A stretch of DNA of 42,695 bases. Origin: an uncultured Fretibacterium sp. (GTDB lineage: Bacteria; Synergistota; Synergistia; Synergistales; Aminobacteriaceae). The stretch lies in the NCBI GenBank assembly GCA_937892105.1, contig CALAUZ010000218.1, forward strand, positions 1 through 42,695. Reading direction: 5' to 3'. The notes under the pieces were generated by a model, which had not been told where the DNA came from, ran no database searches, and saw only the letters and a list, made by a program, of their open reading frames with translations. The position numbers were made by a program, and so were the translations under genes. Every line of letters begins with the position of its first letter. Within the stretch, counting starts at the first letter, position 1. Shown here in pieces: positions 25,682-38,879 of this stretch.

Positions 25682-27016
25682 ATGCTGGACACTATAGCAG
25701 CAATATCTACGGCATTGGGTGAAGGTGCAATCTCCATCGTGAGAATATCTGGGCCTGATGCCGTCAATATTTCCCGCAAGATACTGACACGCCGGGAATT
25801 TCCCGAACACTCCAGAATGTATCTTACCAGCCTTCACGATGTGGAAGGGAACATTATCGACAGAGTATTGTGCGTACACTTCATGAAGCCGTCAAGTTAC
25901 ACTGGCGAGGACATAGTAGAGATACACACTCACGGGGGAATTATGGCCGCGAAAACATGCCTTGAGCTTGCGTTGTCGAACGGCGCAAGAATGGCGGAAC
26001 CTGGCGAGTTCACCCGCAGAGCTTTCATCAACGGAAGGATAGATCTCTCACAGGCTGAGGGTGTTTTGTCTGTCATAGAGGCTAGGAGCAATGAGGCACT
26101 TCACGCGGCAGCAAGGACTTTAACGGGGGAATTGTCGCGGTCATTACAGAAGGTTCACGATGATATTCTGGAGATGCAGGGAAATTTTGAGATACAGATT
26201 GACTTTCCGGAAGGTGAAACACTCGATGGCTTTGACGCTCTGTCGGGGATTGACCGTGCGATACGCGGTCTTGAAGGGATATTGTCGCAATGTTCGGCTG
26301 GAATGGTTTTGAGGCGCGGCGTTAATGTCGTCATTTCAGGCCGTCCAAACGCAGGAAAATCTTCACTCCTCAACGCTCTGCTCGGCAGGAACAGGGCAAT
26401 AGTTACGGACATTCCTGGAACAACGCGGGACATCATAGAGGACAGCATAATAATCGGCGGAATACCTGTGAGGCTGTCGGATACTGCCGGACTTAGGGAC
26501 ACCGGCGACATCATAGAGGCTGAAGGCGTAAGGCTTGCACTTGATGCCATGAACGACAGCGATATTTGCCTTTACGTGATTGACGGCTCAGACAGAGTAA
26601 CGCGGGAAGATATGAGTTACATTCGGGAACTTGATGGCAGACAGGCAGCTATAGTGTTCAACAAGTCAGACTTAGGCTGCGCGGCAGAAAACATAGATAC
26701 ATCATGCCGTAAAATCAGTGTGTCCGCGAAAACTGGGGAAGGCATTGACGCTCTGAAGTCCGCAATATATGACATGGCCGCAAAAAATGCTGTACTTAGT
26801 TCGGGGCTTAATGTGTCGGCGTTACAGCTTGAGGAACTGCGCTTGGCATTGTCGGCACTGCGTGAAGGGAGAAATTCCGCCGTAAATGGTGATGGCGAGG
26901 ATATTACAGCGGGTATGCTTGGTTCTGCCAGAATGTCGTTACTGCGCGTCTTGGGAGTTGATGCCGGTGATGAGCTTCTCGACTCCATGTTCAGAAGGTT
27001 CTGTGTCGGGAAGTGA
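25682..27016 (+). CDS. mnmE: tRNA uridine-34 modification GTPase MnmE (TrmE)
   Basis: MnmE with MnmG makes the 5-(carboxymethyl)aminomethyl group of wobble uridine-34. The N-terminal folate-binding domain begins DTIAAISTALGEGAISIVRI. The G domain has GRPNAGKSS (P-loop, about residues 220-228), DIPGTTRD, DTAGLR and FNKSD. The C-terminal hallmark FRRFCVGK, with the catalytic cysteine, is present. I choose ATG 25,680-25,682 so the protein opens MLDTIAAIST; GTG 25,670 would add four residues. It is close behind the CCA-like gene. Its last 78 bases are overlapped by the 3' end of the convergent FAD-protein gene. Confidence 0.95.
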   Translation: MLDTIAAISTALGEGAISIVRISGPDAVNISRKILTRREFPEHSRMYLTSLHDVEGNIIDRVLCVHFMKPSSYTGEDIVEIHTHGGIMAAKTCLELALSNGARMAEPGEFTRRAFINGRIDLSQAEGVLSVIEARSNEALHAAARTLTGELSRSLQKVHDDILEMQGNFEIQIDFPEGETLDGFDALSGIDRAIRGLEGILSQCSAGMVLRRGVNVVISGRPNAGKSSLLNALLGRNRAIVTDIPGTTRDIIEDSIIIGGIPVRLSDTAGLRDTGDIIEAEGVRLALDAMNDSDICLYVIDGSDRVTREDMSYIRELDGRQAAIVFNKSDLGCAAENIDTSCRKISVSAKTGEGIDALKSAIYDMAAKNAVLSSGLNVSALQLEELRLALSALREGRNSAVNGDGEDITAGMLGSARMSLLRVLGVDAGDELLDSMFRRFCVGK

Positions 27017-29662
27017 GGGAGCAGCTTTGTCCATTGCGTTAATGATGAGGCTTACAGCTTCTCCTTTCGTCATTCCATCGTGAAATTCAGGAGCGTTAAT
27101 CTTTCCCTTCATGGCTTCTTCCGCTTTCGTTATAATCCCTGCAAGTTCCTTCTTCGTTATCTTCCTGTCAACTCCAAAACGTCCCTGTACCCTTCTGCTC
27201 TTTGACGGTGAACTAATCCTCTGTTTGGGGTAAACAGGATACTTTTCCGGCTCAATGAGTTTATACAGTGTTGCAATCTGCACAGCACCATAATACTTGT
27301 GGTTCTCCGGAACGTCAGAATACTCCGCAAGTGAAAGCATTACGCCGCAATCTGTCAGCAGCTTCTGTACGTGTATGGGGTGAATATCGCGCGGCTTAAC
27401 GTCCCAGCTTACAGAGAGTGCCGCAAGAGTTCCAACAGCCTGCCCCGTCATCATGCATACGGGCTGAAGCCTTAATGCTCCAGAAGCAAGACGCGACATC
27501 GACAAGTTCTTTTCCGCCGCAAGAAAGTTATCATCACTGGCAGGGATTAGTATTCTCATTGGTGCCTGGAACGCTCCGGCCGGTTCATGTTCGCGTATTG
27601 ATGCCTGATGTTCTCCAAGCTCATGCTCAAAGTCATCATCGTCATCTCCGGCGTGAAGGTCTATTATATAGCCGCCGATTGCGATTGCGTCAGGTAATTC
27701 GCGGTTCTTGCCGTCCCTGTAGCTCTGTGAGTTCTCGTATAATGCCCGCGAATTGTACGTGTATTCACCAACTATCCTCCTGCATTCCCGAACGTATGGG
27801 ATTGGCGGTAAATGTCTAGCTATGTTCTTCCATTCGTCAGGCAAATCTTTGGCGGCCTCTGGCAGCTCATCGTATTCATTCTCGTCAACTGACCATGTTT
27901 CGCCAAGTTCGTTTTGAATATAGTATATGAAATGTAACGTCTTAATGAGTGCTTTGCGGTTTATGTCTTCCCTGAACGCTTTATCCTCAAGGTATGCGAT
28001 GGGAAGGCCGTATTTCTCGTCCCAGCCGTATTGGCCAGGATAGTCATTGCCCCAGTTTACGCCGGTTTTGGTGATACGTTTCCAGTCCTTTCGCGCACCG
28101 GTGTAGCTTCCAGGCAAATATGAATCCGGAACTGCCCTGTAAGCGTTGTGCGCGGAAAATTCTGCGGGCAGCTTGAACGGCGATCTGTCTCCAGCTCCAA
28201 AAGCATTGCGAGATACATAGGCAGTGTAATTCTTGCGTGCTTTCTCGTAATCTGGAAGGGGTGATTTCGGCCTCAGATGTCCAGGTACTCCTTTCGGGTA
28301 TTTGCGGATTACGGCTGTCCATGTTATGTCCTGTATCATTGAGGCTGGGTTCATGTCTGGGGATAGAGAGTTTCCAGAACGGTATTGCAGTCCTGCAAGC
28401 GGGATAACGTCCCCGCATTCTGTTGCGTCAATGAGTATCTTGCAGGTGTAATACTTTGTACCTTCCCGCGTTCTGACAGTTACAGACTTTCCGCCTTCAA
28501 CTGCCTCTACCTTCACTATATCTGCGTGAAAGAGTATATCTGAGCTTACGGCCATGTCTGCCAGTATTTTATGTCCGGCTGACGGCTCAAACGCTTTACC
28601 GTCCGTCTTCCAGTACGATGTTGCAATAGACTTCCTCATTTCCCCGTAATGTTCCCTAACCCTGTCCATGAATTCATGATATATTCCGTTCTCCCTTAGC
28701 CTGCTCATGTCGTCCATCGTGCTTACACCCGCCGCAGTTGCCTGGCCTCCTAGCATTCCTGTCGGTTCGACAACAAGGACTGACGCTCCGAGACGGGCTG
28801 CCTGAATTGCAGCAGATATTCCTCCCATTCCTCCGCCGGCAATAACAATGTCATATGCGTATGCTGATGATGATACGGACATTATGAGACTTGCAAGAAG
28901 AAGCATAGTTTTTCGGAGGCTAATTCGTTTTGGAATGATTACTACAGCAGAAGATACCGCGAAACTTACAACGGCAGTGAACAGGAAATTGCTCATTCCG
29001 GAAAGTTCTAACTGTCTTGCTGCAATGATAATAACCATGAAATGAAGAATATATACTAAATCTGTAACCTTCCGCAAAGTCCTCATTGATGCAGGTGAAT
29101 ATTCCACGTGAACTTTCAGGCCGATAATCAGAAGGAAAAACGCAGGTATCCAGCCGAATATTGTTATGTCATTGTAGATTGGAGGAGTAATGTTTCTGCG
29201 GAGAATTTCTGCTTCAATGAATGACAATGTGAATGCCGCAACCGTAAATATAATTGCTGATGACATTTTCATGTTCACGATTTCCCTGTGCTTGTATAAC
29301 TCTCTCCCTGCAAAAAGCAATAGAAGTATCAGTCCTTCAGCAAGCGCAATCAAATACCACAGATGATTGAACCCGAACACAAGCTGAGGCCATAACGGAG
29401 AGTTTTCTGCGATGTAAACGGAGTAAAGAACACTGGAAATTATGTAGATTGCCAGAATGCGGATAATATACGAACGCTTCTTGCCGCTGTCCATTCCGGA
29501 AAAGAAATATCCCGATGACATGAAGAAGAATGGAACGCAGAACCTGAAGAACCGTTGCCCGTAGAAGTAATTTGCCGTTGTATTGGCGAAGATGTTGCCG
29601 ACGTGAGAAGCTATTATGAGGATACAGCAGAATAATTTGATGATGTCAACAGAATTAACCAT
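26939..29662 (-). CDS. Fusion of an acyltransferase-3-like membrane domain with an FAD-dependent oxidoreductase
   Basis: One 907-residue frame. Residues 1 to about 248 are a polytopic membrane domain of about eight helices resembling Acyltransferase-3/OafA-type proteins (conserved ASH at 18-20; MSSGYFFSG). A short basic stretch and then a signal-like hydrophobic run (TMLLLASLIMSVSSSAYA, 252-269) lead into an FAD domain starting YDIVIAGGGMGGISAAI (Gly-rich loop 276-281), with VLVVEPTGMLGGQATAAG and a LIDATECGDVIPLAG segment typical of FAD-dependent (PF12831-like) oxidoreductases. A C-terminal 90 residues contain two KITKKELAGII/MTKGEAVSLII elements. Acyltransferase and FAD oxidoreductase are normally separate; no internal start with a ribosome-binding site is seen. 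The last 78 bases overlap mnmE antisense. Confidence 0.75.
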   Translation of the reverse strand: MVNSVDIIKLFCCILIIASHVGNIFANTTANYFYGQRFFRFCVPFFFMSSGYFFSGMDSGKKRSYIIRILAIYIISSVLYSVYIAENSPLWPQLVFGFNHLWYLIALAEGLILLLLFAGRELYKHREIVNMKMSSAIIFTVAAFTLSFIEAEILRRNITPPIYNDITIFGWIPAFFLLIIGLKVHVEYSPASMRTLRKVTDLVYILHFMVIIIAARQLELSGMSNFLFTAVVSFAVSSAVVIIPKRISLRKTMLLLASLIMSVSSSAYAYDIVIAGGGMGGISAAIQAARLGASVLVVEPTGMLGGQATAAGVSTMDDMSRLRENGIYHEFMDRVREHYGEMRKSIATSYWKTDGKAFEPSAGHKILADMAVSSDILFHADIVKVEAVEGGKSVTVRTREGTKYYTCKILIDATECGDVIPLAGLQYRSGNSLSPDMNPASMIQDITWTAVIRKYPKGVPGHLRPKSPLPDYEKARKNYTAYVSRNAFGAGDRSPFKLPAEFSAHNAYRAVPDSYLPGSYTGARKDWKRITKTGVNWGNDYPGQYGWDEKYGLPIAYLEDKAFREDINRKALIKTLHFIYYIQNELGETWSVDENEYDELPEAAKDLPDEWKNIARHLPPIPYVRECRRIVGEYTYNSRALYENSQSYRDGKNRELPDAIAIGGYIIDLHAGDDDDDFEHELGEHQASIREHEPAGAFQAPMRILIPASDDNFLAAEKNLSMSRLASGALRLQPVCMMTGQAVGTLAALSVSWDVKPRDIHPIHVQKLLTDCGVMLSLAEYSDVPENHKYYGAVQIATLYKLIEPEKYPVYPKQRISSPSKSRRVQGRFGVDRKITKKELAGIITKAEEAMKGKINAPEFHDGMTKGEAVSLIINAMDKAAPSLPDTEPSEHGVEKLITGINSQDAQ

Positions 29663-29762: not shown

Positions 29763-31502
29763 ATGGACAAGACAACAAGAAAACTTAACGGTTCAGAAAT
29801 ATTGATACAGTGTCTTCTTGAGCAGGGAGTTGATACAATATTCGGCTATCCTGGCGGAGCAATCCTCAATGTTTATGACAAGTTATACGATCACCCCGAA
29901 ATCAGGCACATTCTCACCGCACATGAACAGGGAGCATCACATGCCGCAGACGGTTACGCGCGTTCAACGGGGAAAGTCGGGGTATGCTTCGCCACATCAG
30001 GGCCAGGCTCAACAAACCTCACCACAGGAGTTGCTACAGCATACATGGACAGCTCCCCAGTCGTATTCATAACATGCAACGTAAATTCTGACTTAATCGG
30101 CAGGGACTCGTTTCAGGAAGTTGACATAACAGGCGTAACACTTCCCATCACAAAATGCAGCTATATAGTCAGCGATGTGCATAATCTTGCGGACACAGTT
30201 AGAGAGGCTTTTGCTGTTGCACGTTCAGGAAGACCAGGCCCGGTACTCATAGACATACAGAAAAACGCAACGGCTGACGAGTGCGAATATTCACCTGTAA
30301 CACCCGATGAGTTTTTCTACGGCCCTAACGCAAGAATGCAGAGGTTAAGAACTACACATCACCCTTCATTAGGCTGTCCTGAAATCGATATGAAGGCGAT
30401 AGACCAGCTTGCGGAAATGATTGAACGTTCCGAGAAGCCTCTGATGGTATGCGGCGGAGGAGTTGTGCGTTCTGGAGCTTTTAAGGAGTTCAGGACGCTT
30501 GCAAAACGTATAGACTCTCCCATCGCCATAACAGTAATGGGAGGCGGTGCGGTAATGGGCAGAGACCCTCTCGCTACAGGAATGATAGGTATGCATGGTT
30601 CTCAAGCGTCTAACATGGCATGTGATGCGTGTGATTTGCTTATAGCCGTAGGGTGCCGCTTCTCTGACAGGGTAACGTTGAACCCGGCGGGTTTCGCAAA
30701 GAATGCAAAGCTAGTACATATTGACATTGACCCTTCAGAAATCGACAAGAACATAAAGACTAACCTGCACATAATCGGGGACGCAAAGAATATACTTTCG
30801 ATTTTGTTGGGGAAGATTAAGGGCGAAAAGCATAATGACGGCTGGAAGAATTATGTTTTCTCATTCAGGCGCGAGACAGAATACGATGACCCCGCCGACG
30901 GAACGTTGACACCGAAGCAGATACTTTCAGCGGCAGCAGAGATACTTCCTCAAGACACTATCGTAACGACAGATGTAGGACAGCACCAGATGTGGGCGAT
31001 ACAGCACTTCAAGTTCGATTATCCCGGACAGTTGATTACTTCTGGCGGTTTCGGAACGATGGGATTTGGATTGGGAGCGGCAATAGGTGCGCAGGCCGGC
31101 AACCCTGAAAAGACGGTGCTCCATGTTACGGGAGACGGTTCTTTCCGCATGAACTGCAACGAGCTTTCAACGGAGCAATACTACAAGATGCCAATAATAA
31201 CCCTGCTTTTCAACAACGCAACTCTGGGAATGGTCAGGCAGTGGCAGCACTTAATCTACAAGGAGCGTTACTCGCAGACAACTCTGGACAGAGGCCCTGA
31301 CTTTGCGAAACTGGCATACGCATATGGTGTTCACGGCGTGAGTGTAAGGAATGAGGGTGAACTCCGAAGGGCATTGAACGACGCGGTAAGTTCCAGGTCT
31401 GACGGACTTGGCTGGGTGATAGACTGCCGGATTGACATGGACGAGATGGTGAGGCCGATGGTTGGCGGAAACAGTTTCATCACGAATTTCATGCTCTACT
31501 AG
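29763..31502 (+). CDS. ilvB: Acetolactate synthase, large (catalytic) subunit
   Basis: This TPP-dependent enzyme condenses pyruvate with pyruvate or 2-oxobutyrate, the first common step of branched-chain amino-acid synthesis. The 579-residue length is standard. Visible landmarks are GYPGGAILNVYD, the cofactor-activating glutamate in AHEQGASHAADGYAR (E55), ATSGPGSTNLTTGVATAYMD, the SFQEVDI FAD-domain segment, and the TPP/Mg loop GDGSFRMNCNELSTEQYY followed by TLLFNN. A GAGGGG site precedes the ATG. The regulatory subunit gene follows after 13 bases. The biosynthetic ALS (with ilvN) rather than catabolic AlsS is supported by that neighbour. Confidence 0.95.
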   Translation: MDKTTRKLNGSEILIQCLLEQGVDTIFGYPGGAILNVYDKLYDHPEIRHILTAHEQGASHAADGYARSTGKVGVCFATSGPGSTNLTTGVATAYMDSSPVVFITCNVNSDLIGRDSFQEVDITGVTLPITKCSYIVSDVHNLADTVREAFAVARSGRPGPVLIDIQKNATADECEYSPVTPDEFFYGPNARMQRLRTTHHPSLGCPEIDMKAIDQLAEMIERSEKPLMVCGGGVVRSGAFKEFRTLAKRIDSPIAITVMGGGAVMGRDPLATGMIGMHGSQASNMACDACDLLIAVGCRFSDRVTLNPAGFAKNAKLVHIDIDPSEIDKNIKTNLHIIGDAKNILSILLGKIKGEKHNDGWKNYVFSFRRETEYDDPADGTLTPKQILSAAAEILPQDTIVTTDVGQHQMWAIQHFKFDYPGQLITSGGFGTMGFGLGAAIGAQAGNPEKTVLHVTGDGSFRMNCNELSTEQYYKMPIITLLFNNATLGMVRQWQHLIYKERYSQTTLDRGPDFAKLAYAYGVHGVSVRNEGELRRALNDAVSSRSDGLGWVIDCRIDMDEMVRPMVGGNSFITNFMLY

Positions 31503-31515
31503 GGGGGTGAAGGAC

Positions 31516-32028
31516 ATGCAGGCAAAAGAAGACAGCAAGAGCCTAAAGCGATACACGATAATAACGGCGATGGACAATGAAGCGGGAGTGCTATCACAAC
31601 TGGCGCACTTATTCTCACGGAAGGGGTATAACATTGAGACGATCGCGGCAGGGTGGACGGTTGACCAGAATGTTACGCGCTTCACGATAGAGATATATTC
31701 TGACGAGGAGAGAATAAAGCTGCTATGCTCACAGCTCCGTAAACTCGTGCCAATTCATTATGTCGAGATACTTGACCCGTCGAAGTCGATACGAAGGGAG
31801 TTAATGCTTGTTCGTGTGAAAGCTGAGGACAGAGCCTCAAGGAATGAGATTATCCAGATAGGAAACATCTTCAGGGGTAGTGTTGTGGACATTACGCCTG
31901 ACAGTATAACGCTGTCGGTTACGGGAGATGACCAGAAGACGCAGGCATTCGAGGAGCTGTTGAAAGAGTTTGGGATAATTGATCTTGCGAGGACGGGAAT
32001 TGTAGCGATTGAGCGCGGTGAAATGTAG
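31516..32028 (+). CDS. ilvN: Acetolactate synthase, small (regulatory) subunit
   Basis: The 170-residue protein starts at ATG 31,516 (AGGGGGGTGAAGGAC upstream); an in-frame upstream codon lies inside ilvB. The N-terminal ACT domain reads YTIITAMDNEAGVLSQLAHL, with FSRKGYNIETIAAGWT and NVTRFTIEI following; valine binds there to feed-back-inhibit the enzyme. The C-terminal domain ends with SLSVTGDDQKTQAF-type and FGIIDLARTGIVAIERG elements as in other IlvN/IlvH proteins. It joins IlvB to form the holoenzyme. A weak hairpin terminator follows at 32,039. Confidence 0.93.
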   Translation: MQAKEDSKSLKRYTIITAMDNEAGVLSQLAHLFSRKGYNIETIAAGWTVDQNVTRFTIEIYSDEERIKLLCSQLRKLVPIHYVEILDPSKSIRRELMLVRVKAEDRASRNEIIQIGNIFRGSVVDITPDSITLSVTGDDQKTQAFEELLKEFGIIDLARTGIVAIERGEM

Positions 32029-32038
32029 TGTTAAAATA

Positions 32039-32075
32039 CAAGCCTCTGAATGAAACTTTAGGGGCTTGTCTGTTT
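32039..32075 (+). terminator. Weak terminator after ilvBN
   Basis: CAAGCCTCT pairs with AGGGGCTTG (9 bp, one G-U) and is followed by TCTGTTTC, a poor T tract. Read-through into the SGNH/MBOAT operon is possible. Confidence 0.55.
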
Positions 32076-32102
32076 CATCAAAAAATATGCGGGAAAGGAG
32101 TA

Positions 32103-32132
32103 TTGACAAAAGTGAAAAAATCTGCGTATAAT
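32103..32132 (+). promoter_or_regulatory. Consensus sigma-70 promoter overlapping a GTG start and leading into heptamer repeats
   Basis: A perfect TTGACA (32,103-32,108) and perfect TATAAT (32,127-32,132) are 18 bases apart. The start of transcription would fall near 32,139, inside the GTCAGCA repeats. The same stretch includes AAAGGAG (32,094-32,100) and GTG 32,112-32,114, so if the promoter is used the GTG lies upstream of the transcript start. Changes in repeat number cannot change the -35/-10 spacing but would change the 5' leader. Confidence 0.7.
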
Positions 32133-32133
32133 T

Positions 32134-32164
32134 GTCAGCAGTCAGCAGTCAGCAGTCAGCAGTC
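32134..32164 (+). repeat. Heptanucleotide tandem repeat (GTCAGCA)x4 plus GTC
   Basis: Four perfect tandem copies of GTCAGCA at 32,134-32,161 are followed by GTC (32,162-32,164). Seven is not a multiple of three, so each unit gained or lost shifts the frame. In the present state the frame from GTG 32,112 (…MKKSAYNCQQSAVSSQQS) stops at TAG 32,166-32,168. With three or six units it runs straight into the SGNH-protein frame. Confidence 0.95.
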
Positions 32165-32325
32165 CTAGTTGTATTCTAAAATTCCTTACACTTTCACTCA
32201 AAATCAGCATTTCGGGTTTCGTTGCGTTTAGCATTCTTTCTTCTCTGTTCGGATTTTATAATAATACACCTGTCGTTAGCACAGACCCTGATGGGGCAAC
32301 AGATTTCCGTTCGCGACCTGATTAT

Positions 32326-33177
32326 GTGTGGACGCAATGTTTTGAAGGTTTTTCTTACGGCAAGACCAATAATGAGGGATATAATTTTCCTTATGACTAC
32401 AAACGAGGAATGAGCATAGATATTCTTGTTATGGGGTCATCGCACATGCAAGCCCATGAACTACAGACAAAAGAGAATACAGCTAGTCTTCTTAGTACAA
32501 TGTTTAGTTTTAAGGTGTACAACATAGGAGCTGGAGAACATTTTCTGCTTTCGTGTTTATGCAATCTCAAAGCCGCAGCAGAAAAATATCGTCCATCAAA
32601 GTACATAGTCATAGAGACACCAAGTATAAAATTTTCAGATAAAGTACTCAAAATGGCAGAAGCAGGTACGTTACCTGAAGCAGGCGTTGTGAACAGGGGA
32701 ACTCTCAGATTGATATTAAGAGAGAACAAATATTTCTTCCATCTATGGAGACTATGGAGAAATATAAACAAAACTGCTAATACAGAATACAATCAATCAG
32801 AGCAAATCAATGATACATTATTCAACGATTCAGAAATCATGTTAAGGCTCATGATACTGGCTGAGGAAACTGCTTCCTCATGCGGAGCAAAATTAATCAT
32901 TGCCTATCACCCTTCAATTTCTCTCAACAAAGACGGAACACTGAAAATTAATGACGATCCCGAAATCGTGAAGCAGTTTTCGGATTTATGCTCTGAGAAC
33001 GGGATTTATTTCCTCAACATGGCCGAACGTTTCCTCAGTGAGTACGAAAAGAGTTACACGCTGCCTTACGGCTTCATCAACACGTCAGTCGGCACAGGAC
33101 ACATGAACTCAGAGGGACACAGAATGTTTGCAGATGAAATATATGCTCTCATAAAAAGAATCGAGGCAAAATCATGA
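32326..33177 (+). CDS. SGNH-hydrolase-type surface-glycan acetylation partner, N-terminus out of frame in this copy
   Basis: The annotated start (GTG 32,326) gives 283 residues with an SGNH-like block I (DILVMGSSHMQ, S38-S39-H40) and a C-terminal GTGHMNSEGHRMFADEI resembling the DxxH block. Upstream of GTG 32,326 the same frame stays open to at least 32,115 and encodes a membrane anchor (KFLTLSLKISISGFVAF…) but contains no ATG, GTG or TTG. The anchor can be translated only from GTG 32,112 through the heptamer repeats after a change of repeat number. It overlaps the MBOAT gene by 4 bp. Such SGNH/MBOAT pairs O-acetylate cell-surface polysaccharides. Present state: probably OFF. Confidence 0.75.
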   Translation: MWTQCFEGFSYGKTNNEGYNFPYDYKRGMSIDILVMGSSHMQAHELQTKENTASLLSTMFSFKVYNIGAGEHFLLSCLCNLKAAAEKYRPSKYIVIETPSIKFSDKVLKMAEAGTLPEAGVVNRGTLRLILRENKYFFHLWRLWRNINKTANTEYNQSEQINDTLFNDSEIMLRLMILAEETASSCGAKLIIAYHPSISLNKDGTLKINDDPEIVKQFSDLCSENGIYFLNMAERFLSEYEKSYTLPYGFINTSVGTGHMNSEGHRMFADEIYALIKRIEAKS

Positions 33178-34565
33178 TATTCACATCACTGGCATTCATG
33201 ATATTCTTTGCTGTTGTTCTCACGGGAGTATCAGTAATTCAGCAATTTCAATGCGGCGACAGAGTAAAACATTATTTCCTGCTTTTTGCCAGCTTCTTCT
33301 TCTATGGCTGGTGGGATTGGAGATTTTGCTTCCTCCTACTGTTCGTAATCTCATCATCATATATTTCCGCCCTGTACTGCCGTAAAAAGCCCGTATTCAT
33401 TCTCGGTGTCTCAGTGCCATTGATAGTATTGGGAGTGTTCAAGTATTTTAATTTCTTTATGGGTTCACTTGGCCTTCACGCTTTCAGCAGCCTTAAAATC
33501 ATTCTTCCTGTAGGAATATCATTCTATACCTTTCAGGCATTGAGCTATGTTATTGACGTTCACAGAGGGAAAATTCCCGCAGAGAAGGATTTTATACGGC
33601 TCGCTCTGTACATTTCGTTCTTCCCTCAGTTAGTGGCCGGGCCAATCGTTAGAGCTTCTGATTTCCTGCCCCAATTATATGAACCTTCGCGGAAATTGAC
33701 GGCCGTTAATTTCTGTACCGGCGTTCAGATTATGGCGATGGGCTTCTTCAAAAAGGCTGTACTTGCGGATCATCTCTCTGTTTTTGTTGATGATGTTTTC
33801 AGAGTACCTGTTGCGTTTCACTGGGCAGCCATCATTCTTGCGGTAATGTCGTATTCGTTGCAGATATATTTTGACTTCTCAGGCTACTCCGATATTGCGA
33901 CAGGCTGTGCGAAATGTATGGGCTATGACTTCATGACTAACTTTAATCTGCCTTATATATCCCGTAGTGTTTCGGAGTTCTGGCACAGGTGGCATATTTC
34001 ACTTTCCGGCTGGCTGAGAGATTATTTGTATATTCCATTGGGAGGTAACAGGTGCGGGAAGTTCAGACAGCTAATGAACCTTATGATTACGATGCTTCTT
34101 GGAGGGTTATGGCATGGGGCAAATTGGACGTTCGTATTCTGGGGCGGACTTAACGGGCTTGCATTGTGTGCTGAGAAAATATTTCCTTCACGCAAAAACA
34201 TAACTGGCATACTCATGAATACACTGAAGGTTGTTGCCGTGTTCCTGTTTATTTCGTTCACATGGATATTCTTTCGGGCTGAATCTTTTACTGATTCGTG
34301 GCTGATAATCAGAGGGATCTTCACATTTCAGAACGGGATAAGGCAGCCGTTTTTCTGGACATTTGCAGCAATGACAATACTCATAATATCCGAAGCTGTT
34401 GCGTTATTCAGAGCCAAACGCAAAAATCTTTACCCTGTAACCGGCTTCACTCCCATAATGGACTTGAACACTATAACAGGTCTTACTGTATTTTTTGTGT
34501 TCGTAGGATTGATTTTGGGATTGGCGTTTACTGGGGAAAATCCGTTCGTTTACTTCCAGTTCTGA
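33174..34565 (+). CDS. MBOAT-family O-acyltransferase
   Basis: The 463-residue polytopic protein has about ten membrane helices. MBOAT landmarks are GISFYTFQALSYVIDVHRG, FPQLVAGPIVRASDFLPQ, DFSGYSDIATG (235-244), the EFWHRWHISLSGWLRDYLYI stretch, and the catalytic histidine in GGLWHGANWTF (H314). In AlgI/DltB-type systems the MBOAT protein moves an acyl (usually acetyl) group across the membrane to an extracytoplasmic SGNH partner, which transfers it to the glycan. The start ATGA overlaps the SGNH stop, so the two are coupled. A strong terminator follows. The polysaccharide substrate is unknown. Confidence 0.9.
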   Translation: MIFTSLAFMIFFAVVLTGVSVIQQFQCGDRVKHYFLLFASFFFYGWWDWRFCFLLLFVISSSYISALYCRKKPVFILGVSVPLIVLGVFKYFNFFMGSLGLHAFSSLKIILPVGISFYTFQALSYVIDVHRGKIPAEKDFIRLALYISFFPQLVAGPIVRASDFLPQLYEPSRKLTAVNFCTGVQIMAMGFFKKAVLADHLSVFVDDVFRVPVAFHWAAIILAVMSYSLQIYFDFSGYSDIATGCAKCMGYDFMTNFNLPYISRSVSEFWHRWHISLSGWLRDYLYIPLGGNRCGKFRQLMNLMITMLLGGLWHGANWTFVFWGGLNGLALCAEKIFPSRKNITGILMNTLKVVAVFLFISFTWIFFRAESFTDSWLIIRGIFTFQNGIRQPFFWTFAAMTILIISEAVALFRAKRKNLYPVTGFTPIMDLNTITGLTVFFVFVGLILGLAFTGENPFVYFQF

Positions 34566-34577
34566 GATACAAAAATG

Positions 34578-34610
34578 CCCCCAGCCACTTTGAACTGGGG
34601 GTAATATTTT
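34578..34610. terminator. Bidirectional rho-independent terminator
   Basis: CCCCCAG and CTGGGGG form a perfect 7-bp stem with loop CCACTTTGAA. TAATATTTTG follows on the plus strand and CATTTTTG on the minus strand. It separates the MBOAT gene from the convergent protease gene. Confidence 0.85.
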
Positions 34611-34622
34611 GCGTTTTTCGTG

Positions 34623-37600
34623 TTATTCTTCTGCTTTTTCTGCCTTCACTGCTATTACTGGAGCATACGTTACCCCTTCAGTGAGCCATGCGGATACCGT
34701 AACTCTGTGTTTCTCAGGAACAGTCTTTGTGTCAGCCCCTGAGTCGTCATAGAACTCCGCAATTTCATCGTCCTCTGTGGGTTCAGCATTCTTCGGGAAC
34801 GCAAACCAGAATAACTCTGCTCCCACTGGAATATTCTCGCCGATTACCGCCTCAATGTTGTACATTCCCGAAACATTCGCGCTCATCTCAGGAAGTACTG
34901 CCGCAACGATATAATCTCCGCTTTCCAGAACATTAATATCCTCGCTCGAAAGTGATGTTGCTGTTCTTTCTGCCCTGAGTGTAAGCACTGGGTCTGGCTT
35001 TGCTTCACCTTTCTGTTCCTGCTGTACTGTTTCAGGAGTAATGCTTCCGTCAGACTGCGGGTACTCCTGTACCGATGTGTTATTCTCGGTTGTAAGAGTG
35101 TCAGTAAGTGCCGAATTGTTCTTAGCCGCTGGGGCTTCTGCAACAGTTTTGTTGTTCGGGTCTGTTACTGTGAGCGTGAACTCCTTGATGTCACTTCCAA
35201 TGTTATTATAGGCCGTTATGGTTATCGCAAAGTTCCCTGCTTCAGTTGGCTTACCCTTGAATGTCCCATTGCTGAATGTTATACCTCTGGGCAATTTTCC
35301 GCTCAACAACCAGCGAATAGTTTTCGTTCCCGATGCCGTAACCTTACTGCTGTATGTCTTGTTCAATGTTCCGGCAGCGAGTGATGTTGTCGTTATGCTC
35401 GGAGAAGTCAGGGTCTTGATTACCACTTTCTTCGTAACTTTCCCATCAGCATTCGAGGCTGTTATAGTTAGTGTCGTCGTAGTATCTCTTGAAGGTGCTG
35501 TCCCTGTCAGCTTTGCAGTATAATCCCCAGTCTGTACAAAGTTGAAACCGGATACGCTGTTCATACTGAGAACTATATTCTTCGTGCCTGTAACCGTGAA
35601 ATCCATATTTACAGGGCTGTTTACCTCCTGCGTGAGATTTACTGTGCTTGCTGAAGGTGTTACAAACGAAGGCCTCTGACCCGTTATCGTAAGCATTACC
35701 CTGCTTGTTGACGGAACAGATGACACGGAATTTGACGCTATGAAAGTAATGGGAAGATTCCTCAGCGATATTAACGGTGTGCCCGTAATCTGAGCAGTCC
35801 CAGCTGATGGGTTAGCCGTGAAGTTAAGCCCGATATCTCCAAGCCCTGATATTCCGAACCTTGCCTTGTCTGCGTCCGAAATTGAGTACGTTATCGTTAT
35901 CGGTTTCGTTCCTGTGGCGGAAATCCTGCTGCCTGAATACGATACTCCCGCTCTTGCGCTTCCTAGTGAGGCCGTAAGTCTGGGAGCAACTCCCCTGACC
36001 GTAAGTGTTATTGTCCTCTCATCATATCCTGCGACATTTGATGCTTTGACCCTGAGATTGTACGTTCCTGCGACTACGGGTGTTCCTGCTATTGTTGCTG
36101 TAGTTCCTGTACTGTTCTGCGTGAGTTTCAGTGTTCCAGGAAGACCGGAAACTGTCCACGTTATAGGATTATTGCCGGTTGCCTGCAGCCTTGCCGTGTA
36201 TGACTTGTCAGTTGTGGCTGTTGAGAGACTGCGTGTCGTTATTGTCGGCTTCTGAAGCACCGTAAGAGGAACACGCACAGAGGCTTTCCCTCCTGCATTT
36301 GTGGCTGTTACTGTCATGTTGAACCTTCCAGCCCTTGCTGGAGTACCTGAGAATACACCCGCGCTGCTTATCCTCATTCCTGAAGGCTGGCCAGACAATG
36401 ACCACGTTATCGGTGCTGTACCTGAAGATGTCGTGAATGTTACACTGTCGTACGCTTCTCCCATTATTGCATCATTGAGCGTTCCAGGATTGGAGATTAC
36501 AGGAGGCTTGGCTTTCACTGTGAGCCTTATCGTCTTCGTTACCGGCCTGTTTTCCAGCTTTGTGGCTATGTTTTCAGCAATTACCGTAACTGTATAAGTG
36601 CCTGCCTTCTTCGGTGTGCCGCTCAAGTTTACGTTGCTCCCGTTAATAGATAAACCGTCAGGCTGACCCCTCACTGCTATGGTTATCGGTTCTGTTCCTG
36701 TCGCTGTTATGGTCTGTGAGTATGGCGTGTCAACCATTCCTGTTGCAAGGCTCGAAATCCTTATAGTTGGTCTCACAGGGCGCGGATTTATAGTGAATGT
36801 AGCTATGTGCGATGTTGAAGCACCAGATGAGGTTTTCGCCGTGAAATTCACAGTGTATGTTCCAGCCCTTGTCGGTGTCCCGTAAATGAGACCTGTTGAA
36901 GGTGTCAGCCTTAACCCTGCCGGAAGTGCTCCTGACGCTGACCACGTTGCCGAAACGCTGGGTACCAGTGTAAGAGTTTCCCTGAACGCATAGCCAACAT
37001 ACCCAGTGAATGACGCAGGGGGAATGACATAACCGCCTGAAGCGTCAATGGCCTTGATGGTAAATGGCTTTGAGTCTGAGCCGTAGCTGTTATTCGCCGT
37101 AACAGTGAACGTATAATTCCCTGCCGATGTCGGTGTACCAGTAATTGCTCCTGTTGATGCGTTTATTGACAGACCGGCCGGAAGATTGCCGCTTGTTGAC
37201 CATGTTATCGTTGCAGTCCCTGACGCTGTAATCTGTGCGCTGTAAGGCTGGCTTACGTATGCATCGGGCAATGATGACTCTATGATTGACGGTGCTGTCC
37301 CTGATGGCGTTGACGATGTATCGGTAACAGTGAAGGCTTTTATGCAGGCGTTCATACCCTGACTTTTCCCGTTTATCCAGCTTGTTCCGGTTGCGGAAAA
37401 GAAGCTGCCGTCTTCTATTGTTGCGTTGCCTGACCAGCCCGAAACTTTATACTCTATGGGTGCGCTTGCAGTCCCTGTGAACTTTACGACTACAGAGAAA
37501 TATTCACCTTTGGACAATGCCACAGGTTCAGCGAGCGTTATTGTGTGATACCCTGCATATGCCTCATTGCCTGACATCACGGAAGAAGCTCTGCCCCCTG

Positions 37601-38879
37601 AAGGTATAGGGCTGTTCGTTGGCATTGATGACATTCCACGATAAATGCTTATCTCATAACCTACATTGTTATCGGGCGTGAAGAAGCCCACTTCTTTAAG
37701 GGTTTCATTGTCGCGTTCAGACCTGAAGACATTTGCGGCATAAATCTGTGATAATCCGTTGTAACTCCAAGTCCCGCACCAGCCTAACGCATCATAGTAA
37801 TAGGCTTTCATCGCACTGTCTGCTTCTTCGGCAACAAATGCGCTCCCTTCAGTGAGGTACTGTGCATATGACAGCCAGAAATATCCGCTGTCTCCCCATG
37901 AAGCTCCCCACGAGTTCTTTATCAGCCATGCGCCGTCTGTTCCTGGATTAGTCTTGAAGTTATTACGCGAATAATTGTCGTCCCAGCCAACTATCTGTAT
38001 GGCATGATTTACTGTTGAGCTTGTGTTGTAATAGCTTGTTCCAGCTGAAGAATTGTAGTAGTTGCCGCTGCTGCTGAAATAGTTTGCAACTACTGCGCCG
38101 TTCTCCATTATTCTGCGTTTTACCGTGTCTCTTGCTGATGATGAAGCGTTGACGTTAGGTTCATCGGTGAAAGCAAGATAGAATACTTCCCTTAGCCTGA
38201 GCATTCTCTTGTAGTCATCTGGCGAATACTTTGACGGTTTTGTGCCATAAGGTGCTTCCGTCTCGTCTGCCGGACCAGAAAGTCTGGAGAACATAGCCGC
38301 AGGGTAGAATGAGTTTCCTCCATTATCCATTATTGCTGAGAAGCTGGAACCTCCTGGACTAGTAAATGCCGCAGAGCTGTTTGAGTTCGAGAATGTGAAC
38401 CATGCCAGATGGGCTTCCGAGAGATCATAGGTACTCTTTCCCTGCATAAGCATGTTGGACTCCATTGCGCCAAGTGCCGCATGTGCCCAGCATGTTCCAT
38501 ATGGGTTCTGGTTCTTGATTGATGTAACGTAATTTTTCCCGTTCACGTTTCGGAGGTCGTATTTTGTGGGAATACTTACTGCCTTCCTTGTGGGGAATTG
38601 AGAAGCGTTTTCTGCGGGAGGGTTGTTTGCAAGGTGGGATAAATCCACAGGGAAGGGAATATGTCCTGCCTTGAACACTTCGCCATTAAGGGAGTTTTTC
38701 ACCGTTGGCATTGACATTTCAGGGGTATATTCTGCCCGCCACTTCATGAATGCCGGTGAGGGTGCTGCTATGCTTCCGTTTGCTTCAGTGCCTCCTGCAT
38801 CGCCGGCAAAAACAGGCAATACCACAAGGGACATTAGAAGCAACACAGAAATTCCTGCATACTTCAAAAATTTCTGCAT
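34623..38879 (-). CDS. Secreted papain-like (C1A) cysteine peptidase with lectin-like and eight Ig-like repeats
   Basis: This is a 1,418-residue secreted protein. Signal peptide at 1-25. The C1A peptidase (about 100-345) has Q124 and C130 in IKNQNPYGTCWAHAALGAME, H292 in VNHAIQIVGWDD, and N322 in WLIKNSWGASWGDSGYFWLS. A beta-rich lectin-like domain follows (about 355-515; SERDNETLKEVGFFTPDNN, then WINGKSQGMNACIKAFTV). Then come about eight He_PIG/Ig-like repeats of 80-90 residues each, with the usual GLPAGL…TGTP..AGTYTFTVTA pattern. An acidic C-terminal 150 residues ends the protein without a sorting motif. It starts with AAGGAG and ATG. It probably degrades host or dietary protein at the cell surface. 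No neighbour hints at regulation. Confidence 0.92.
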   Translation of the reverse strand: MQKFLKYAGISVLLLMSLVVLPVFAGDAGGTEANGSIAAPSPAFMKWRAEYTPEMSMPTVKNSLNGEVFKAGHIPFPVDLSHLANNPPAENASQFPTRKAVSIPTKYDLRNVNGKNYVTSIKNQNPYGTCWAHAALGAMESNMLMQGKSTYDLSEAHLAWFTFSNSNSSAAFTSPGGSSFSAIMDNGGNSFYPAAMFSRLSGPADETEAPYGTKPSKYSPDDYKRMLRLREVFYLAFTDEPNVNASSSARDTVKRRIMENGAVVANYFSSSGNYYNSSAGTSYYNTSSTVNHAIQIVGWDDNYSRNNFKTNPGTDGAWLIKNSWGASWGDSGYFWLSYAQYLTEGSAFVAEEADSAMKAYYYDALGWCGTWSYNGLSQIYAANVFRSERDNETLKEVGFFTPDNNVGYEISIYRGMSSMPTNSPIPSGGRASSVMSGNEAYAGYHTITLAEPVALSKGEYFSVVVKFTGTASAPIEYKVSGWSGNATIEDGSFFSATGTSWINGKSQGMNACIKAFTVTDTSSTPSGTAPSIIESSLPDAYVSQPYSAQITASGTATITWSTSGNLPAGLSINASTGAITGTPTSAGNYTFTVTANNSYGSDSKPFTIKAIDASGGYVIPPASFTGYVGYAFRETLTLVPSVSATWSASGALPAGLRLTPSTGLIYGTPTRAGTYTVNFTAKTSSGASTSHIATFTINPRPVRPTIRISSLATGMVDTPYSQTITATGTEPITIAVRGQPDGLSINGSNVNLSGTPKKAGTYTVTVIAENIATKLENRPVTKTIRLTVKAKPPVISNPGTLNDAIMGEAYDSVTFTTSSGTAPITWSLSGQPSGMRISSAGVFSGTPARAGRFNMTVTATNAGGKASVRVPLTVLQKPTITTRSLSTATTDKSYTARLQATGNNPITWTVSGLPGTLKLTQNSTGTTATIAGTPVVAGTYNLRVKASNVAGYDERTITLTVRGVAPRLTASLGSARAGVSYSGSRISATGTKPITITYSISDADKARFGISGLGDIGLNFTANPSAGTAQITGTPLISLRNLPITFIASNSVSSVPSTSRVMLTITGQRPSFVTPSASTVNLTQEVNSPVNMDFTVTGTKNIVLSMNSVSGFNFVQTGDYTAKLTGTAPSRDTTTTLTITASNADGKVTKKVVIKTLTSPSITTTSLAAGTLNKTYSSKVTASGTKTIRWLLSGKLPRGITFSNGTFKGKPTEAGNFAITITAYNNIGSDIKEFTLTVTDPNNKTVAEAPAAKNNSALTDTLTTENNTSVQEYPQSDGSITPETVQQEQKGEAKPDPVLTLRAERTATSLSSEDINVLESGDYIVAAVLPEMSANVSGMYNIEAVIGENIPVGAELFWFAFPKNAEPTEDDEIAEFYDDSGADTKTVPEKHRVTVSAWLTEGVTYAPVIAVKAEKAEE

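What the first reader, a model, noticed from the sequence alone, without database searches (positions are those of the whole stretch)
32094..33177. Heptanucleotide contingency switch at the start of an SGNH/MBOAT surface-acetylation operon
Four perfect GTCAGCA repeats separate a GTG start (32,112; AAAGGAG upstream) from the frame encoding the SGNH protein's membrane anchor. With four repeats the frame from GTG ends at TAG 32,166. Deleting one repeat (or adding two) gives MKKSAYNCQQSAVSS followed in frame by the anchor and the enzyme. The anchor frame has no other ATG, GTG or TTG start before 32,326. This is the classic layout of slipped-strand phase variation, in a cell-surface glycan O-acetylation operon. 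The sequenced state is OFF. Strand slippage at 7-bp repeats with surface-glycan switching is a known strategy elsewhere, but I know of no such locus described for this gene pair in Synergistota. A perfect sigma-70 promoter overlapping the same bases is a complication: if used, its transcript starts inside the repeats and downstream of the GTG.
Basis: partly seen in the sequence, partly recalled or inferred. Interest (0 to 1): 0.9.

Follow-up and report, generated by a model that had tools for sequence, protein, structure and literature searches.

The report
Repeat-count switches for surface-sugar genes
A short DNA repeat at the start of a gene pair that probably modifies surface sugars looks like a random on/off switch, and related gut bacteria carry dozens of similar switches, built to one common plan, in front of other surface-sugar genes.

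Summary
In detail: (GTCAGCA)4.4 lies at 32134-32164 between a GTG start (32112) and the start-less frame of an SGNH/MBOAT pair. With the window I collected 80 elements of one plan, the other 79 from genomes of one Synergistaceae genus: Shine-Dalgarno, TTGACA, start codon, TATAAT, then a tandem array 0-1 nt later (72 of 80), unit 7 nt (70) or 5 nt (10). Glycosyltransferases and MBOAT genes are the commonest targets. All 36 distinct units are stop-free on the sense strand, 24 of 36 on the antisense strand. In 40 of 72 analysable loci the array frame runs into the gene; in 32 it encodes a leader whose stop lies within 9 nt of the gene's own ATG (32 of 32), which implies translational coupling. 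20 of 72 are in the ON phase. Orthologues of this locus have 18.4 units (OFF) and another unit, AGAGCCA x6.6 (ON). Slippage itself was not observed. The consensus promoter overlapping the start codon recurs and is unexplained. New variant of a known kind.

The parts
31516..32028 (+). ilvN, acetolactate synthase small subunit (mechanical ORF from TTG 31462; ATG 31516 more likely); marks synteny with two orthologous loci
   Evidence: Pfam/NCBIfam AHAS small subunit; same neighbour upstream in L001 and L215, by reading their sequence
32009..32037 (+). candidate upstream promoter P1 (TTGAGC-17-TAAAAT, TG before -10) whose transcript would carry the SD and GTG
   Evidence: 9 of 12 consensus match; weak, no experiment
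32038..32069 (+). hairpin, terminator-like, after ilvN
   Evidence: hairpins also seen by eye in L001 and L215
32094..32100 (+). Shine-Dalgarno AAAGGAG
   Evidence: sequence; purine-rich SD in the other elements, partly by search design
32103..32132 (+). promoter-like P2: TTGACA-N18-TATAAT, straddling the start codon
   Evidence: spacer 17-18 in 75 of 80 elements
32112..32114 (+). GTG start codon of the switch ORF
32134..32164 (+). (GTCAGCA)4.4 array, the switch
32166..32179 (+). stops of the two OFF frames (TAG 32166-32168, TAA 32177-32179)
32116..33177 (+). SGNH-fold protein with N-terminal membrane anchor; frame open from 32116, no canonical start before 32326
   Evidence: predicted structure mean pLDDT 75.7, weak matches to esterase/SGNH structures including PatB
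33174..34565 (+). MBOAT O-acyltransferase, ATG overlaps the SGNH stop (ATGA)
   Evidence: PF03062 E 3.4e-31; overlap

Best explanation
A translational phase-variation switch, one of a family of such switches. A transcript that starts upstream carries the SD and GTG. Ribosomes read through the array, and the unit count modulo 3 decides the frame. In one phase translation continues into the SGNH protein (its MBOAT partner following by ATGA coupling); in the other two it stops within 15 nt of the array. Replication slippage changing the 7-nt unit number would switch the pair ON and OFF; here it is OFF. In a little under half of the family the array sits in a leader ORF instead, whose stop overlaps or abuts the gene's own ATG in one frame, so the count gates translational coupling. 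Shown from sequence: layout, stop-free units, frames, coupling geometry, differing arrays in orthologues. Inferred: slippage, expression, glycan O-acetylation. Unexplained: the consensus promoter between SD and array.
For: Same locus downstream of ilvN in two relatives: L001 GTCAGCA x18.4, OFF and L215 AGAGCCA x6.6, ON. 80 elements: 70 heptads, 10 pentads, no other period although 2-12 were allowed; one later element, L241, has an 8-nt unit; none has a multiple of 3. 36 of 36 distinct units stop-free in sense, 24 of 36 in antisense, Fisher p 8e-5; base-shuffled units reach 36 in 33 of 20,000 trials. No unit has ATG in sense, 7 do in antisense. Leader class: one frame ends within 9 nt of the gene's ATG in 32 of 32; within 8 nt in 31 (permutation mean 8.5, max 19); overlapping in 16 (mean 2.0, max 8); the other frames stop at median 4 nt, at most 34 nt, after the array. 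Fusion class (40): the later of the two wrong-frame stops comes at mean 39 nt against 70 nt in control draws inside the same genes, 0 of 5,000 draws as low. ON 20 of 72, p 0.38 against 1/3. OFF fusion genes are not decayed: median 332 aa against 348 for ON. Motif-free scan of 774,801 bases: 13 of 14 distinct 5/7-nt arrays sit in this element (rows merged and judged by eye). G058 contigs C95 and C124 overlap by exactly 141 nt and C95 ends after (GTCGCAG)4GT, where 4- and 5-unit alleles would part. Homologues with array-encoded N-termini: 6 of 27 aligned (by eye) plus P0048, 1 of 12 read.
Against: No repeat-number change was observed directly for this locus: one contig, no reads, no isolates. 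P2 would start transcripts downstream of SD and GTG; if P2 were the only promoter the switch ORF could not be translated. For this locus the upstream promoter is weak and a terminator-like hairpin lies between it and the SD. A P1-like -10 is absent in 21 of 79 loci, this one and L001 included. Starts 15-19 nt after GGAG (17 of 72) are far for an SD. L004, a homologue of the same gene, has no array. Units may share ancestry, so the 36 are not fully independent, and most elements were found by a motif that includes SD and promoter.
Confidence: 0.85

Rival explanations
1. Transcriptional tuning: P2 is the real promoter, transcripts start in the array, and unit number adjusts output by spacing or initial-transcript effects (as proposed for H. 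influenzae hmw1A), without any frame switch.
For: TTGACA in 67 of 80, TATAAT or TACAAT in 76 of 80, spacer 17-18 nt in 75 of 80, array starting 0-1 nt after the -10 in 72 of 80; terminator-like hairpin upstream of the SD in the window.
Against: P2 transcripts of fusion-class genes would lack the start codon upstream of the array, and 30 of 36 units contain no ATG/GTG/TTG. Stop-free sense units, absence of multiples of 3, and leader frames ending at the gene's ATG are unexplained.
Confidence: 0.07
2. For the leader class only, and compatible with the main reading: leader-peptide attenuation. The phase controls whether a ribosome disrupts a terminator before the gene, as in S. gallolyticus pil1, rather than restarting at the ATG.
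For: The leader length changes with phase in 32 loci, like the published system (PMC3894217, abstract and one section read).
Against: The stop clusters on the gene's ATG (11 of 32 at exactly +1, ATGA; 5 at -2), the geometry of coupling. I did not scan leaders for terminators.
Confidence: 0.25
3. Heptad arrays are neutral or mobile intergenic repeats, common in bacteria, that land near promoters, with no switching role.
For: [quoted passage not shown]
Against: Fixed position and orientation, stop-free sense strand, coupling geometry and gene classes.
Confidence: 0.03

Closest known systems
neuO of E. coli K1 (phage-borne capsule O-acetyltransferase)
   Same: Heptanucleotide array in the 5' coding region of a surface O-acetylation gene; full-length translation when the count is divisible by 3; 42 of 64 complete genomes OFF (PMC13001214, passages read)
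   Different: One phage cargo gene, unit AAGACTC, different enzyme; no mention in the passages read of an overlapping promoter, of many differing units, or of a coupling class
H. influenzae SSR contingency loci, including the hmw1A/hmw2A heptads
   Same: Many surface genes of one species under SSR control; the hmw heptads lie in promoters and may act through two alternative transcription starts (PMC2651432, passages read)
   Different: Mostly tetranucleotides; hmw heptads are reported upstream of the gene as promoter elements, not as translated arrays (one intragenic exception in strain PittAA)
S. gallolyticus pil1 leader peptide (GCAGA repeats)
   Same: 5-nt array in a translated leader whose frame gates the downstream gene (PMC3894217, abstract and one section)
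   Different: Acts by disrupting a terminator; a single locus; here the leader stop sits on or near the gene's ATG
TAACTGA heptads of marine Beggiatoaceae
   Same: Genome-wide heptads near gene starts (PMC4679880, passages read)
   Different: One unit, with stops in forward orientation, mostly intergenic, no pattern in gene function reported
PatA/PatB, DltB/DltD, AlgI/AlgJ-type MBOAT plus SGNH pairs (pairing recalled, not searched)
   Same: MBOAT gene next to an SGNH-fold membrane-anchored partner; PatB among the weak fold matches
   Different: The SGNH protein matches no Pfam or NCBIfam family at E 0.001 and no PDB sequence at E 10; substrate unknown

Membership tests
SSR translational contingency locus (slipped-strand phase variation) | Tandem repeat, unit not a multiple of 3, between start codon and gene frame | tested here: met
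   80 of 80 family elements 5 or 7 nt, a later one 8 nt
SSR translational contingency locus (slipped-strand phase variation) | Different copy numbers and frames at the same locus in relatives | tested here: met
   x4.4 OFF, x18.4 OFF, different unit x6.6 ON, between species
SSR translational contingency locus (slipped-strand phase variation) | Copy-number variation within one population | tested here: inconclusive
   Assembly split in G058 at the 4/5-unit divergence point; no reads; not this locus
SSR translational contingency locus (slipped-strand phase variation) | Expression switches reversibly with count | not testable with these tools
   needs isolates or reporters
neuO-type coding heptad O-acetyltransferase | Homologous enzyme and AAGACTC unit | tested here: not met
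   unit GTCAGCA; the pair is MBOAT by Pfam and SGNH-like by fold; no direct alignment to NeuO was made
hmw1A-type promoter heptads | Repeat untranslated, acts on promoter strength | tested here: not met
   untranslated part not met: stop-free units, coupling geometry; a promoter-like motif does abut the array
pil1-type leader attenuation | Leader ORF frame controls a terminator before the gene | not tested
   leaders found in 32 of 72 loci; terminators in leaders not scanned
SGNH/MBOAT O-acylation pair | MBOAT plus SGNH-fold partner | tested here: met
   MBOAT by Pfam; SGNH by weak fold matches only
SGNH/MBOAT O-acylation pair | Acylates a surface glycan | not testable with these tools
   needs glycan analysis

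The most novel reading that the evidence does not exclude
The element is a promoter-anchored repeat generator: P2, conserved although its transcripts could not carry the switch's start codon, opens the DNA where the arrays begin (0-1 nt after the -10 in 72 of 80) and so creates and keeps unstable the 5- and 7-nt repeats that then act as reading-frame switches. That would be a dedicated hypermutation device for a whole surface phasome, driven by transcription initiation.
Probability: 0.2. Interest if true: 0.92.

Novelty: new variant of a known kind. Interest (0 to 1): 0.78.

Why it matters
It would add a lineage of gut Synergistaceae to the bacteria with many phase-variable surface-glycan genes, with a stereotyped module: overlapping promoter, 5- or 7-nt array, and two output modes including count-gated translational coupling. 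It predicts that single populations are mosaics of surface glycans, relevant to phage and host or protozoan pressure in the rumen, and that gene callers truncate or miss these genes. It also makes a mechanistic question testable: why the arrays start next to a consensus -10 element.

Tried and rejected
Whole genome of the window: not held, so I used relatives reached through loci; that the window belongs to their genus is not established. Viral contigs: 68 pattern stretches, no relative confirmed. Phage records: no near match. GTCAGCA as a genome-wide dispersed repeat: rejected; in 6 relatives three tandem copies occur only at the orthologous site of G001. Rfam on 31500-34700: nothing. PDB by sequence: nothing.

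Dropped rows. Of the 118 matches I first fetched 78, from 14 genomes, plus 2 regions (L125, L126) chosen; I left out single matches in other genomes, contig-end matches and odd-looking ones. 70 of those 80 regions entered the element set; the other 10 are one duplicate (L141), L125, which has GCTCACA x6.9 but no SD of the forms I allowed, L170 with a run of N, and 7 with remnants or no clear array. Of the 40 matches left out I later fetched 14: 8 have arrays (L223, L225-L229, L242 heptads; L241 an 8-nt unit x2.4), 6 have none (L230, L236-L240). None of the 14 is in the 80. So 70 of 80 is not an unbiased rate; one search is free of the motif, though its contigs were chosen because they carry elements. 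Of 80 elements 8 had ORFs under 100 aa and were dropped from the frame analysis (72 left). My first start-codon choice gave 22 ON of 72; requiring the start ORF to cross the array gave 20 of 72, used throughout. Start-to--10 distances rest on the first choice. L003, L004 and L215 are outside the 80. The 'stop-after-array' label is a bug and was not used. One search timed out and was rerun mended.

Full report
Observation. The repeat is the strongest tandem repeat in the window, and its dimer is not expected by chance.

The gene pair. The downstream gene is an MBOAT acyltransferase. The upstream protein matches no Pfam or NCBIfam family at E 0.001. Among its homologues one is named SGNH/GDSL hydrolase and several carry PF13472. 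Its AlphaFold model (mean pLDDT 75.7) has 8 PDB matches at E up to 0.001: CgnD (2 chains), an acetyl xylan esterase (2), YxiM, a putative SGNH hydrolase, PatB of C. jejuni and SsfX3; TM-scores are low, 0.36-0.44 by query length. A membrane-anchored SGNH/MBOAT O-acylation pair is therefore likely and its substrate unknown. The MBOAT start overlaps the SGNH stop (ATGA).

The same locus elsewhere. A Synergistaceae MAG from roe deer rumen (L001, 71% identity) has the gene at the same place after ilvN, with (GTCAGCA)18.4. A third genome (G074, L215) has ilvB and ilvN upstream but unit AGAGCCA x6.6, and there the ATG frame runs uninterrupted through the array into the anchor. L002 and both genes of L005 have other units; L003 has about 2.6 GCGTCCA units; L004 has none. 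The records of other bacteria L006-L013 show no array of about 2.9 or more copies, period 5-12, upstream of the gene; L012 has ATTAT x2.8 inside it.

A family of switches. Without reference to the motif, 774,801 bases from two relatives contain, after merging rows split by a gap or mismatch (my reading), 11 heptad, 3 pentad and 3 other arrays (periods 6, 9, 11). Thirteen of the 14 heptad/pentad arrays sit in the same element: purine-rich SD, TTGACA (12 of 13; the other ATGACA), start codon, a -10-like hexamer of varying quality, array. Searching the motif and fetching regions gave, with the above, 80 distinct elements with arrays (selection told under Tried and rejected), 79 of them in genomes of G001's genus and one in the window. 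A strict motif occurs in 18 of 120 genomes sampled across the phylum, 0 for the reversed control. All 18 are among the 31 sampled genomes that belong to G001's genus; 0 of the other 89 have it. In a looser family-wide search 30 of 59 genomes have at least one match, many of them single and unexamined.

Genes. Of 72 downstream ORFs, Pfam finds glycosyltransferase 2 (12), MBOAT (10), glycosyltransferase 1 (8), GT8 (7), methyltransferase (3), bacterial sugar transferase (2), LicD (2), nitroreductase (2) and radical SAM (2) (families overlap, the first 25 of 46 are shown). The window's SGNH ORF, one of four in the set, matches none. Not all are glycan genes: L113 looks like an aminotransferase by eye.

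The arrays are translated. All 36 distinct units are free of stops in sense, 24 of 36 in antisense. None has ATG in sense, 7 do in antisense. Since neither 5 nor 7 is a multiple of 3, a stop-free unit is open in all frames. In 72 of 72 loci some ATG/GTG/TTG 4-19 nt past the SD core starts an ORF that crosses the array.

Two outputs. Fusion class (36, plus 4 with a possible internal start): the gene frame is open into the array, and the 36 have no SD-preceded ATG of their own within 140 nt, as in the window. Leader class (32): the gene has its own SD and ATG 41-127 nt past the array. In all 32 one array frame stops within 9 nt of that ATG, in 11 at +1 (ATGA) and in 5 at -2, while the other frames stop at median 4 nt. 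Only one phase in three leads a ribosome to the gene. ON phases: 11 of 40 and 9 of 32, as expected for random counts.

Population variation. Six contigs end inside arrays (L223, L225, L226, L231, L233, L234). The clearest is G058: C95 ends and C124 begins with the same 141 nt, ending in (GTCGCAG)4GT. The next base is C if a fifth unit follows and A if the array ends. An assembly graph would split there if both lengths were present. Suggestive, not proof; I did not see the reads or the assembler's settings.

Promoters. A TATAAT-like hexamer 16-38 nt upstream of the SD occurs in 58 of 79 loci (shuffled mean 23.9, max 31), and TGNTAYAAT within 110 nt in 34 (shuffled mean 0.9), so many loci have an upstream promoter P1 that can carry the SD and start. 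The window has only a 9-of-12 candidate. P2, across the start codon, has TTGACA in 67 of 80, TATAAT or TACAAT in 76 of 80 and spacer 17-18 in 75 of 80; the array begins 0-1 nt after its -10 in 72 of 80; distances from start codon to -10 vary from 7 to 18 nt. P2 conservation is partly built into the motif search, but TTGACA holds in the motif-free scan (12 of 13), where the -10 is TATAAT or TACAAT in 9 of 13 by eye. P2 transcripts would lack the start codon, so P2 cannot drive the fusion class. I have no tested explanation.

Literature. Searches (open-access full texts only; others listed 20 of 35, 20 of 126 and 15 of 123 papers) listed no paper whose title or opening abstract describes such loci in Synergistota; ('Synergistaceae' with 'phase-variable') found none. 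The two listed papers naming Synergistetes that I opened mention it only in a table or a count. Closest published systems were read in part.

Noticed in passing
window 34623-38879 (-): Large surface-type protein: papain-family protease, lectin-like domain and repeated putative Ig domains (He_PIG), convergent with the MBOAT gene.
   Followed up: no
window 26939-29662 (-): One ORF fusing an acyltransferase-3 domain to an FAD-dependent oxidoreductase.
   Followed up: no
L005 1-2284: Two tandem SGNH paralogues in one genome, each preceded by an array of a different unit (CGAGCCA and CGCTCAA); the first array is cut by the contig start.
   Followed up: partly
L241 (G056:C1): The same motif followed by a unit of 8 nt, GGCTTCAG x2.4, the only unit other than 5 or 7 nt that I saw in this position.
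   Followed up: no
L228, L229, L232, L173 (G052): Four near-identical elements in one genome with CGCACAT x5.4, 3.4, 3.4 and 5.4, apparently before related GT8-type genes: recently duplicated switches.
   Followed up: no
P0001: The database protein for the window's gene is 255 aa and starts downstream of the anchor: gene calling truncates this OFF-state gene.
   Followed up: no
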